From Liolophura sinensis (taxonomy: Eukaryota > Mollusca > Polyplacophora > Chitonida > Chitonidae), in the NCBI RefSeq assembly GCF_032854445.1, contig NC_088300.1, positions 73,895,005-73,959,004 on the forward strand: a stretch of DNA of 64,000 bases, written 5' to 3'. Shown here piece after piece: positions 7,207 through 53,100 of the stretch; position 1 is the first letter of the stretch, and each line of letters opens with the position of its first letter. A program made the translations under genes and the position numbers. The notes beneath the pieces are model-generated. The model saw only the letters and a list, made by a program, of their open reading frames with translations. It was not told the DNA's origin and did no database searches.

Positions 7207-10200
7207 AGCCACAGCAGAGAGTACTCCAGCCAGCATGAAGTTTGTGCAGTTTGAACCACTGACTGGAAGCAGGAAGGGCAATGTGTGCCTTGGAGTTGAG
7301 TTGTCCAGGGGTTCCGATATCGCTGATTTATCGTCAGGGGACAAGACACTGCCAAACAACATGTGCGAGTTTTTGGAACAGGGAGAGACAACAGTGGAAA
7401 AGGCCAGAAGGTATACTGTATAGATCAACAGTGGTACAGAAGGTATACTGTATAGATCAACAGTGGGTCAGAAGGTATACTGTATAGATCAACAGTGGGC
7501 CAGAAGATATACTATATAGATCAACAGTGGGCCAGAAGGTATACTTTGTAGATCTGCACTAACCACCATAATTCTTCAACCTTTTCAACCACCTCTGCAA
7601 CCAATATTTATAAACATTCGGAGAGAATTATCGAGTGTTGAGAAATAATCTGCACAGTTTTATGAAACTTGCATCTTTAGTGACACAAACAAAGTTTAGG
7701 GTCATTTTCATAATAATTGTATGTAGAAATTCCATTCAAAAAAGTGCTTTAGAGTTTGAAAAGGTTGAAGATTTACAGTAAGGGTTGGCACCATTCCCCT
7801 AGTCTAGGCGACATCAGAAAATGAAACCAAAACATTTACATATGATCAAATGATTTATTTCATTTGCGTTATATATCACATACCAGATCATTGTGCTAAT
7901 TGGAGTGAAAGAGGTTCGTGATTGAAATCAGTGGCTTCACTAATTGATGGTTTCTAAAATATTAGTATATTGACCAACATTAAATTATTATCCAGCTTTA
8001 TTTGACTCCTTAATGCAAAGATGTCTCCTAGAAGAATGAATCTTTCTGAAATATTGAAACATCAATTAAGGCATCTTAATTTATTCTGAGCTCGTGTACT
8101 TCATGAATTTTTTTTATCTTTCACACCTCCTGACTTTCCATTTTAGCCCACAAACAGAAATTATGACCAATCACCAAGTATTAGTGGAAGAACTTGTATA
8201 TGTGAGGGGCTATATATCCGAAGATCCCCCAAAGCAACATCCCCTCCCCCCAGTACTCACCCCCTGTGATCCCCACCTATACACACACACACATACACAA
8301 CCCTCCACATTTTTCTAGAGAGCAGCCATTTTTTCATAGAAATGTCACTGGACCCTGGTCTGTTCTTAGCTTATCTCCCACAACACCCTCCTCACCACCC
8401 CTCTCTCCCCGCTCTTCGAATAACCATCAGTTTGGAAATGGATCTTCTGCCTGTACATGCACCCTATCAAACTGTGTCACGCATTGTACTGTTGTGTATC
8501 AGTATCATATTGAAATCCAAACAGATTGTGCTTATGTAATGTGGCCATGATACAGGGACAAGAGTCATGAAGTAACTTGAGTGCGGTAGATAAAAATAAT
8601 CTAGGCCCAATCATAATCAGAAAGGGCCCCAATCTTAAGATGTATTGGACTTTTGATGGGATTTTTCTTTCAAGGTTAACCTTTTTATAATCCCATCATT
8701 AGCCAGAATTGAAAAAAAAAATGTTCCCTACTCTCCTAACCATATTTCTTTCCGTTAGGACTGTGCTACCACAGTGCCACTCTCTCCCCCTTCCCCCAAT
8801 TTATGATACAATTATTTTGAAAATGATGCTAAAAGTGATTTGTTTGTGTCATAAAAGATGCAGGCCTCATAAAACTGTGCAGATTATTTCTCTACATCTC
8901 ACAATTGTCTCAGCTTTTCTTCAAAATATTGGTTGTAGAGGCAGTTGAAAAGGTTGATGAATTAGGGTGTGCAAAATTCTGTGAACATTAACAGCCTAAT
9001 TGTGTATAGGTTGGGAGAAATGCTTTATTAATATCATTGTTAATCTTGTCATGTTAAAGGAGAAGAAAACCTAAAACAATCACACTATAGGCTGAAAAGA
9101 GCATATTTTTTCTATCTGATAGTGCCTGCTGCATAATTGCATAAAACGGCTGGCATAAATCGCTGAGTTCATCGCGTCCTCCATCTTTAACACCCTGTAA
9201 TTTATGCTGAGGGTGTGTTACCTGTCGTGTTAACTTGGAACCTACGTCCAGCTTTCCGGTTTCGCGATCGTCAAGCAGAAAACTAACTGTACTGTTCGCT
9301 ACCTTCTGGGAAGAAGCGTTGTTCCGGAAATGTGCGAACTGCACTTCGGCGGTTTCTGACGGCAATTCTCCTCCTTACACAAAAGACGTCAGGACTAGTT
9401 CTAAGGCAAAATGGGTCACCCATAGCGGATTTTGGCGCTGACTTTATGTATAATTTTTAAGTTGAGGTACACATTAGAATTTTTTATGGCATGCACCTGC
9501 GAGGAAATGCATACTGTTTTCAATGGTATTTGTTTGATATTTAAATTTTCTTCTCTTTTAGGTGATGATTCATTTTGCATGTTAAGTGGTAACTCATTTG
9601 GTATGTTATTAAAGTGATAACTCATTTGGCATGTTATTAAAATGGTAATTCATTTGGCAGACTACAGAACTTTGTGTTCTGCTGTTTAACAGTTTAATCA
9701 GCAGTGGTGACTGCCCGATCCTGAAAGCTGATAGCTTTCGACTTCTGGCTCCGATAACGCATCCAGACAAAGTACTGTGTGTAGGGATGAACTGTGTTGA
9801 TCACTGTGAGGAGATTGGGGCAGTCCTTCCCACTGAACCGGTCATCTTTAACAAGTTCCCCAGCACTATCATAGGCCCTGGTGATGACCTGATACATCCT
9901 GATGTGACAAAGGTAACATTGAATTGTAAAGCCCATACTAGATAGGAAATCTGTATACCACATGTGGAAAAGTCCATCAGTAACCAGTCAAGGGTCGGTG
10001 GTTAAGGCTGGTCACTCCATTTTCTCCACCCATAAAGCTGCCTATCATCACAGTTAAGTGAAAAATTCTAGAATATGGGTTAAGCAACACTTAAATAAGT
10101 AAGTAATTTGTAGATATGAACACTTGAACTGAAGTTAGAGAATGCACATGCGTGATCGAGAATATTGACTGATAAGTTTCAAGTAATACACAAGTAGTGT

Positions 10201-50100: not shown

Positions 50101-53100
50101 TACTATTCAACTTTAATGACAAGTTTTCTGCCCCAAATTCCTTCAATAACTGACACATGTCCATCCCCCTTAACTTATTTACTTGATTGGTGTTTACACC
50201 GTAAACCGGGAAACCAGGCACAGCTTGAGGGAAACCCACAACCATCCATAGGTTGCTGGCAGACCTTCCAACATACTGCCAGAGAGGAAGCCAGCATGAG
50301 TTTGACTTTACCTTACAGCAACCACATTGCTGAGAGGCTCCCGAGTCATTGCATCATGTTGGTGTGCTAATCCCCTCGGCCCTGCAGCCTCCCGTACCGC
50401 TTGAAAGTGTTACAGCTATAAATAGACGTCATTAGTATCGGATCTGTGACATAGCAAGGCTAACAACCGTTCGTTTTATTCATAAATTCCCCAAAATTTT
50501 AAAGCTCTTCAGGATAATAAATGCCTGTGGACTCCACTGCTATCAATTTTCACACTCACAGTGTTCTGACTGCAACAAGCAGCCACACCCGGTGCTAACA
50601 TTGAGCACCCATTATCAGACACAAAACCTTGATGCGCCCGGTACTCCAAAATCAAGACAGCTCATAAACATTGCTGAAAAGTGGCCTGTGCAGATGTCCG
50701 CGACACAGCCTTTGACACATTTTTTGGTCAGGCAAGCACTAATTGTTTCAGATTCAAGGTACGCAGTATACACCGGGGAACCAGACTAATTTCTCAGTAC
50801 TGATAAGCGTGGATCCTGAGAAGTTGTGACTCAGTATGAAATGACCCAAGATAGTTGAAAAATACACTTTCCAACCGTATTTTTCCAAACTGAACAGTAG
50901 CTATGATGACATGTGTGACCAATCTGTTGACAGCGGCAAAAACAAACTGAAGAAGCGAACCAGGAAAACAGTCCTTTTCTAGTAGCAAAGCGATCCAAAC
51001 AGAAACAAGCCCTGTTTCAGTTAAAAAAACATTATCAGGTAGCAGTTATCAGGTATTACTATAAAATGCTTTGCAAACTTCAATGAAGGCAGTGTCAAAG
51101 AAAATTTACAGCTTCAAAAGCAACTACAACACTGAATTTACATTAGAGTTTACACTGTACAGTAGACTCGGAGAGTATTTTACATCCTACATTTCTACTG
51201 ATATATTCAACAGATTTTGTTCCAACTGTCTTATTATCTTTCTTGGTTCAGATACTCTCTCAGAGATGAGAAATTTTTGAAAAATTTCCTTGATGTGAAA
51301 TATGACACTCCTTACCCGCACACATCCCTCCTCACTCTCTCGCTCATTACTCCACTCAACATGGGCAGGGCCCTGCACTCACATAGTAAATACTTTGCAT
51401 CCTCCTTCAACCAGCCATGATAAATAAAAGTGTACCTGTATGTAATCATAACTGGTTCTAAACTTCACCTGGATGGGTGTGTATGTGGTTCTCAACCTCA
51501 TCCATATGCATAAATTGTTCTGAATCTCACTTGTAGGTATGTGCAAGTGGTTCTGAACCTCACCTGAGTGCATGTGTATGTGGTTCTGAACCTCACCTTT
51601 GTGCATGAGTATGTGGTTCTGAACCTCATCTGTGTGCATGAGTAAGTGGTTCTGAACCTCACCTGTGTGCATGAGTATGTGGTTTTGAACCACACCTGTG
51701 TGTATGCATATAAGCTTCTGGGCCGTATCTGTGTGCATGAGCAAGTAGTTCTGAACCTTACGCGTGTGCATGAGTATGTGGTTCTGATCCTCACCTGTGT
51801 GCATGAGTAAGTGGTTCTGAACCTCACCTGAGTGCATGAGTATGTGGTTCTGAACCTCAGCTGTGTGCATGAGTATGTGGTTCCGAACCTCATCTGTGTA
51901 TACATGTATTTATATGTGGTTCTGAACCTCACCTGTGTGTATGAGTATGTGGTTCTGTACCTCACCTGTGTGTATAAGTATGTGGTTCTGAACCTCACCT
52001 GTATGTATCCGTATGTGGTTCTTATAGTTGGTGGCACTAGCAAATGCTCGGCCACACCCTCTTTCATTACAGATGTAAGGTCGTTCTCCTGTGTGGGTCC
52101 GGATATGAACTTTACGAATGTTAGAAGTTGTGAAAGAACGCTCACAACCCTCAAAAGGACATTTAAATGGCCTCTCTCCTGCAGAAAACCAGGCAGTAAT
52201 TTAAAAAAAAGAGTTTTTAACTGCTGTGTACACTAAATATAAATTTTATATAGTTAACAGAAAGGTATGTAAATTTAGTTTGCTACTGAGTTAATAACAC
52301 ACATGTACATATGCAAGAGTTTACATTGTTTATAATTAGAGTGCAGACAGAAACTATCAGATATGCCTTTCAGCGGAACTTGTAGGGATATTCTTTTACG
52401 TGCAAAGTCTGTGAATTCCATTGTACATTACCTGTGTGTGTTCTGACATGTTTTTGTAGATCCCCAGATGTTTTGAAGGCTTTGTTGCACATCTCATCTG
52501 TACATTTGTAAGGTTTCTCCCCTGTGTGCACCCTCGTATGACTCTTCAGCCCATAGCCAGTAGCAAATGCTTTACCACAGTTTCCATGTTCACATTTGAA
52601 CGGGCGGTCACCCGTGTGGGAACGTTCATGTACCTGTTCAATACAGATAGAACTGAGAACAGGGGGTTCGCAGAGGAGGGGAGGGAGCTATTCTTTATTT
52701 CTGATTGCTATTATTGTTCAGTGTGAATGGTATGTGCTTTAAAACAATGAAGCCCGTATTACAAAGAATAACATTTTCACCTTCACTGCATCAGATTCGA
52801 AAATTTTGAATATTCCAAATAAAACTTTGAGCAAACTGATTCTATCTAGCTGCATTTTAATAAAATGTGGCATTATAAGGGAGGTAACTTATGAAATAGA
52901 TATTCAAGATCATCTTTTTATAGTTATGTCCCCTGTTCTGTAATGGTTAAATATGAACCACACAATGTGGAAAGTTGACGAGATCATGCAGCAGTTAAGG
53001 AATGCTATTTGCAACAAGCAATCTAACCTTTAAATGGTGGGTTGTTGTATAAAATCTACCACAGCCCTCAAATCCACACTTGATTGCTTTATCTGTCATC

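What the first reader, a model, noticed from the sequence alone, without database searches (positions are those of the whole stretch)
7404..52020. Recurrent minisatellites seeded on exon-intron boundaries in three unrelated genes
Four arrays and one two-copy duplication contain real coding sequence joined to the real splice site: FAHD2 exon 1 donor (32 bp), FAHD2 exon 4 acceptor (56 bp), BNIP1 exon 5 donor (108 bp), ZNF143 finger-5 donor (33 bp), ZNF143 last-exon acceptor (104 bp). Other large arrays here lie deep in introns or between genes. Five boundary hits among about 35 coding exons, which are a small share of the window, looks non-random. Amplifying an AG|GT-bearing segment is the starting step in the known model of intron gain by tandem duplication, so this genome may be showing that process, or tolerating strings of decoy splice sites. 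The mechanism is inference; the arrays are directly visible.
Basis: partly seen in the sequence, partly recalled or inferred. Interest (0 to 1): 0.92.

Follow-up and report, generated by a model that had tools for sequence, protein, structure and literature searches.

The report
Minisatellites copying splice sites in a chiton
In a chiton (a marine mollusc), short stretches that straddle the end of an exon have repeatedly been copied into long tandem repeats, about three times as often as chance predicts and almost only at the 5' (donor) splice site; the thing itself was seen before at a few amphioxus genes, but its genome-wide scale and donor bias are new as far as I could find.

Summary
Four arrays in the window contain the coding side and the intron side of a real splice junction (FAHD2 exon 1 donor, FAHD2 exon 4 acceptor, BNIP1 donor, ZNF143 donor). 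The fifth, a diverged two-copy acceptor duplication, is weak. The genome is Liolophura japonica (609 Mb). In independent genes sampled from the same genome (CCT, myosin, DEAD-box, kinesin) 10 arrays span a junction where 3.7 are expected (p=0.001): donors 8 versus 1.7, acceptors 2 versus 2.0. GC matching leaves the donor excess (9 versus 2.5, window included). Genome-wide, CAGGTGAGT lies in arrays of three or more copies at 8 of 59 loci, against 2 of 84 for its dinucleotide shuffle and 1 of 74 for an acceptor word; another donor word, AAGGTAAGT, shows none (1 of 91). A stricter test is weaker (p 0.01-0.16 in the sample; no excess in the small replicate). Intron gain is not supported: the introns extend beyond the arrays, and one array-bearing myosin intron is shared with paralogues that lack arrays. 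This matches amphioxus "mirages", tandem duplications of exon-intron boundaries that leave splicing normal. Best reading: a genome rich in minisatellite births, harmless at donors because the first donor is kept. The cause of the donor bias is unproven.

The parts
7402..7554 (+). 32-bp x 4.8 array seeded on the FAHD2 exon 1 donor; real junction 7410/7411, decoy donors at +32, +64, +128 (the copy at +96 has AT instead of GT)
16165..16855 (+). 56-bp x 12 array seeded on the FAHD2 exon 4 acceptor; real acceptor is the copy at 16809/16810
16972..17442 (+). 22-bp x 21 array starting 22 bp downstream of the FAHD2 exon 4 donor (16949/16950); adjacent, not spanning
42947..43922 (+). 108-bp x 9 array seeded on the BNIP1 donor (79 exonic + 29 intronic bp per unit); real junction 43025/43026, all 9 copies keep GT; the two edge copies keep GTGGTACAGAG, inner copies read GTGTGCACAG
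51453..52022 (-). 33-bp x 17 array seeded on the ZNF143 zinc-finger exon donor (24 exonic bp); real junction 51999/51998, 13 of 18 copies keep GT
47220..47407 (-). two-copy, roughly 104-bp-spaced duplication of the ZNF143 last-exon acceptor; real acceptor at about 47275/47274, upstream copy about 47407-47324 is diverged
16810..16949 (+). FAHD2 exon 4, frameshifted (20 nt short of the reading frame near 16888-16897)

Best explanation
These are 'mirage'-type minisatellites: short tandem duplications (units mostly 20-140 bp) that happen to span an exon-intron junction and then expand into the intron. In this genome minisatellites are born very often in non-coding DNA, more so where it is GC-rich (shown). 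A duplication across a donor leaves the first donor attached to an intact exon, so normal splicing can continue and the array is near-neutral (inferred). Purely exonic duplications are removed by selection (inferred). The array then turns over like any minisatellite, homogenising inside while the edge copies stay distinct (seen in BNIP1). Donors are over-represented about 3.5-5-fold and acceptors are not (shown, moderate statistical strength). I think the likeliest cause is a seed preference for donor-like GT-rich words combined with the harmlessness of downstream decoys (inferred, about 45% for this sub-step). No new introns are being made.
For: Arrays and junctions read directly. Independent sample: spanning arrays 10 versus 3.66 expected, p=0.001; donors 8 versus 1.66, acceptors 2 versus 1.99; with the window 14 versus 4.48. 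CCT and myosin alone: 7 of 43 arrays, expected 2.24, p=0.004. Dependence on GC from about 0.5% to about 3% of ancestral bases amplified; after GC matching donors 9 versus 2.51, acceptors 2 versus 2.33. Whole genome: three CAGGTGAGT in tandem spacing 551 times versus 10 for the reversed word and 173 for the dinucleotide shuffle. Per-locus amplification 8/59 versus 2/84 (Fisher p=0.016; with the acceptor word added, p=0.0016). Two of eight such arrays begin at a visible exon: tissue alpha-L-fucosidase (PDB match E=2e-11) and another open exon. Pre-existing intron: the S|GESGAG position is shared among myosin paralogues. Literature: amphioxus 'mirages' do not disturb splicing (PMC3087553; PMC3902484).
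Against: The stricter k-mer test is weaker: window p=0.06-0.11, sample p=0.01-0.05 with the global background and 0.05-0.16 with the locus-specific one. The DEAD/kinesin replicate alone gives 3 spanning arrays versus 1.4 expected, p=0.13, and 2 of 120 junctions by k-mer, no excess. A second donor word, AAGGTAAGT, is not amplified (1/91). Exons were assigned from domain hits and splice motifs, not from transcripts. The donor/acceptor split was noticed after looking. Several arrays come from the same genes (M19, M39).
Confidence: 0.68

Rival explanations
1. By-product only: minisatellites are so common that some must hit junctions; there is no positional preference, and the donor excess is chance plus composition.
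For: 12% of the sampled gene DNA and about 20% of the window lie in arrays; k-mer tests are borderline; the replicate alone is not significant; acceptors match expectation.
Against: Independent donors 8 versus 1.66; GC-matched donors 9 versus 2.51; CAGGTGAGT exceeds its own dinucleotide shuffle.
Confidence: 0.25
2. A mutational mechanism tied to transcription or splicing (U1-bound nascent RNA, R-loops or polymerase pausing at 5' splice sites) makes donors hot spots for short tandem duplication.
For: The excess is donor-specific while acceptors behave as GC-matched intron.
Against: Among non-junction arrays, donor-like words are not strand-specific once GC is matched and donor-derived arrays are removed. 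AAGGTAAGT sites are not amplified. No direct evidence.
Confidence: 0.2
3. Selection keeps arrays of donor sites because they help splicing or regulate isoforms.
For: GT is kept in most decoys; donor-column identity 0.933 versus 0.882 elsewhere in the unit.
Against: That difference is not significant (p=0.07) and is inflated by anchoring the alignment on the junction. Some decoys are dead (FAHD2 copy 4, five ZNF143 copies). Use of a BNIP1 decoy would add an in-frame stop.
Confidence: 0.06
4. Intron gain by tandem duplication of AGGT-bearing exon segments (Rogers model), caught in progress.
For: Units carry AG|GT; fission-yeast and vertebrate precedents are reviewed in PMC4974935.
Against: Introns extend beyond the arrays with unrelated sequence and their own acceptors. 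The myosin intron position is shared with paralogues lacking arrays. The arrays lie on the intron side of existing junctions.
Confidence: 0.04
5. Assembly artefact: arrays created by misassembly.
For: HiFi coverage is only 14x (PMC11068029).
Against: Mean HiFi read 8.3 kb versus window arrays of at most 976 bp; copies differ individually; the same pattern recurs in unrelated genes on many scaffolds.
Confidence: 0.02

Closest known systems
Amphioxus "mirages" (Adh3, Canestro et al. 2002 as cited in PMC3087553; globins BflGb6/BflGb9, PMC3087553; PGBD5 and TnC, PMC3902484)
   Same: Minisatellite-like tandem duplications spanning 5' or 3' exon-intron boundaries, units of about 10-160 bp carrying AG/GT signals, inner copies homogenised and edge copies distinct.
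   Different: Reported at a handful of amphioxus loci, with RT-PCR evidence of normal splicing and haplotype length variation. Here: a mollusc, many genes, a rate estimate and a donor bias, but no RNA or population data.
Human ITRs at exon-intron boundaries in segmentally duplicated genes (PMC2812944)
   Same: About 30-bp minisatellites at exon-intron boundaries changing gene structure.
   Different: Recent human paralogues, 27 intron modifications; the authors stress altered splicing and new introns.
IFI6 (6-16) minisatellite giving multiple splice donor sites (Turri et al. 1995, cited in PMC4526556)
   Same: By its title, a minisatellite whose copies provide donor sites.
   Different: A single human gene, and the title says the repeated donors function; the paper itself was not available to read.
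Intron gain by tandem duplication (Rogers 1989; Hellsten 2011; potato RdRp, PMC4974935)
   Same: Tandem duplication of AG|GT-bearing sequence.
   Different: A new intron is created there; here the introns pre-exist.

Membership tests
Mirages (tandem duplications of exon-intron boundaries) | Tandem units contain coding sequence joined to intron across a real splice junction | tested here: met
Mirages (tandem duplications of exon-intron boundaries) | Copies carry AG/GT splice signals | tested here: met
   GT kept in 4/5, 9/9, 13/18, 5/5, 16/16, 18/18, 4/4, 5/6, 7/7, 2/3, 3/3 copies
Mirages (tandem duplications of exon-intron boundaries) | Concerted evolution inside the cluster, edge copies excluded | tested here: met
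   BNIP1 only: first and last copies share GTGGTACAGAG, inner copies GTGTGCACAG
Mirages (tandem duplications of exon-intron boundaries) | Regular splicing undisturbed | not testable with these tools
   no RNA; host genes BNIP1 and ZNF143 keep open exons, FAHD2 does not
Mirages (tandem duplications of exon-intron boundaries) | Length instability between haplotypes | not testable with these tools
   one haplotype held
Intron gain by tandem duplication (Rogers model) | Intron is new at that position | tested here: not met
   myosin S|GESGAG intron shared with paralogues M01 and M17; the other introns extend far beyond the array. Not tested against other species
Intron gain by tandem duplication (Rogers model) | Intron made of the duplicated exon segment | tested here: not met
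   window arrays occupy one edge of an intron that also holds unrelated sequence
Introner elements | Similar intron sequence dispersed at many loci | tested here: not met
   units at different loci share only the donor word
Minisatellites | Tandem units of about 10-100+ bp with internal homogenisation | tested here: met

The most novel reading that the evidence does not exclude
5' splice sites themselves are hot spots for minisatellite birth in animals, through a transcription- or splicing-coupled duplication process, so that a few per cent of all donors in this genome have been turned into tandem arrays of decoy donors that the spliceosome ignores.
Probability: 0.25. Interest if true: 0.82.

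Novelty: new member of a known kind. Interest (0 to 1): 0.56.

Why it matters
If about 5% of donors carry downstream strings of near-perfect decoys, this genome is a natural experiment on how the spliceosome picks the first of many identical donors. It extends amphioxus "mirages" to molluscs as a genome-wide process, and it makes the question of whether junction duplication leads to intron gain directly testable by comparing chiton genomes. It also warns gene annotators: spliced alignments and gene finders can pick the wrong copy.

Tried and rejected
The k-mer copy test gave only borderline enrichment and is reported as such. A sense-strand-only enrichment of donor-like words in intronic arrays (p=0.003) disappeared after GC matching and removal of three donor-derived arrays, so I do not claim it. 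Selection on decoy GTs: suggestive only (p=0.07), biased by anchoring. The reversed-word control (551 versus 10) overstates the effect: the reversed word is rarer (2,743 versus 10,120 sites) and the dinucleotide shuffle gives 173. Simple GC composition as the whole cause was rejected. Intron gain was rejected (see rivals). The Canestro 2002 and Hellsten 2011 papers are not in the library.

Full report
Source. The window is G000:C6:73895005-73959004 of a 609,464,459-bp, 632-contig assembly. Four genes lie here: FAHD2 (+), BNIP1 (+), ZNF143 (-) and a GDA1/CD39 nucleotidase (-).

Observation. TRF lists 24 rows. Four arrays contain a splice junction inside the unit: FAHD2 exon 1 donor (AGAAG|GTATAC), FAHD2 exon 4 acceptor (TTTCAG|GAATCAG), BNIP1 donor (CCTAG|GTATGT) and ZNF143 donor (ACATACAG|GTGAGG). 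The ZNF143 last-exon case is a diverged two-copy duplication.

How surprising? The right null is not array coverage (about 20% of the window) but the number of duplicated units in array-collapsed, roughly ancestral, coordinates. Placing each unit at random outside exons, the window's 16 arrays should span 0.82 of 57 annotated junctions and span 4 (p=0.006). Because the window was chosen for this pattern, I tested other genes. Sixty exon-centred loci of CCT and myosin genes (164 kb merged, 84 exons, 168 junctions) hold 43 arrays. Seven span a junction against 2.24 expected (p=0.004): six donors and one acceptor. Examples read by eye: CCT ...AADKV with AAG|GTGAGT in five 109-bp copies, CCT ...EMALAQ|GTGTGT in seven 66-bp copies, and myosin ...QCVIIS|GTATGT in sixteen copies. 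A second set of 60 DEAD-box and kinesin exons (short pieces) gave 3 spanning arrays against 1.4 (p=0.13 alone). All independent data: 10 versus 3.66 (p=0.001), donors 8 versus 1.66, acceptors 2 versus 1.99; with the window 14 versus 4.48. Acceptors share the geometry of donors and fall at expectation, so they act as an internal control.

Weaker results. Requiring a 24-mer centred on the junction to recur at 19/24 or better gives window 4/57 (p=0.06-0.11), sample 7/168 (p=0.01-0.05 with global background, 0.05-0.16 with locus-specific background) and replicate 2/120. The enrichment is therefore real but moderate, and its size depends on the method.

Composition. Amplification rises with local GC, from about 0.5% of ancestral bases below 35% GC to about 3% above 45%. 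After GC matching donors remain in excess (9 versus 2.51) and acceptors do not (2 versus 2.33) (window plus CCT/myosin). In whole-genome pattern counts CAGGTGAGT occurs 10,120 times and in threes 551 times; its dinucleotide shuffle occurs 7,141 times and in threes 173 times. Collapsing the first 100 sites on C1 into loci, 8 of 59 CAGGTGAGT loci are in arrays of three or more, versus 2 of 84 (shuffle), 1 of 74 (acceptor word) and 1 of 91 (AAGGTAAGT). So the effect is word-specific and does not hold for every donor sequence. Reading upstream of those eight arrays showed an exon ending exactly at the first donor in two of them, one of them tissue alpha-L-fucosidase.

What it does. Decoys keep GT in most copies. 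In BNIP1 the use of the next donor would add a stop; in ZNF143 the first decoys would add open 11-residue units ([11 protein letters not shown]) before a stop. The arrays must therefore be mostly ignored by the spliceosome if the genes work. That is inferred here, and reported by RT-PCR for the amphioxus counterpart (PMC3087553). FAHD2 exon 4 is frameshifted, so FAHD2 may not be under constraint in this haplotype.

Mechanism. Shown: frequent, GC-dependent minisatellite arrays across many genes; the junction at scattered positions within the unit (9-113 exonic bp); pre-existing introns (myosin S|GESGAG shared by paralogues); homogenised inner and distinct edge copies in BNIP1. Inferred: birth by short tandem duplication, near-neutrality because the exon-proximal donor is kept, and a seed preference that favours CAGGTGAGT-like words. 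Not shown: why donors exceed GC-matched intron.

Known or new. The structures meet the testable features of amphioxus "mirages" (PMC3087553, PMC3902484); related cases are human boundary ITRs (PMC2812944) and the IFI6 donor minisatellite. They do not meet the defining features of intron gain by tandem duplication. New here are the occurrence in a mollusc, the rate (roughly 5% of sampled donors) and the donor bias. I found no earlier report of these in the open library searched, which is not proof of absence.

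Noticed in passing
window 16810-16949: FAHD2 exon 4 is 20 nt short and shifts frame although all other exons are open and phase-compatible; no second close FAHD2 copy was found, so FAHD2 may be a null allele or a young pseudogene in this assembly.
   Followed up: partly
window 1-4500: Non-LTR retrotransposon (minus strand: zinc-knuckle, endonuclease and reverse transcriptase frames); its first 3 kb match 92-97% at about 40 places, several close together on C16, suggesting recent activity.
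   Followed up: partly
window about 10287, 19320, 21610, 39260, 53440: A dispersed SINE-like element (TTGGTGTTTTACGCCGTACTCAAGAATATTTCACTTATACGACGGCGGCCAGCATTATGG...) recurs in introns and between genes.
   Followed up: no
window 10547-14876: A 60-bp x 73 array (4.3 kb) in a FAHD2 intron, by far the largest in the window, with long open frames on the minus strand.
   Followed up: no
L032 (C8:53410569-53413982): A CCT exon of about 97 bp sits between two different long arrays (41-bp x 13 ending at the acceptor, 27-bp x 43 starting about 12 bp after the donor).
   Followed up: partly
L072 (C11:2673803-2676928): A 32-bp array about 50 bp after a myosin donor whose units (GGGGCAACATGTGAGTATGG) copy that donor, apparently donor-seeded with a gap before the first intact copy.
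   Followed up: partly
genome sample: Tandem amplification rises about 6-fold from AT-rich to GC-rich intron DNA.
   Followed up: yes
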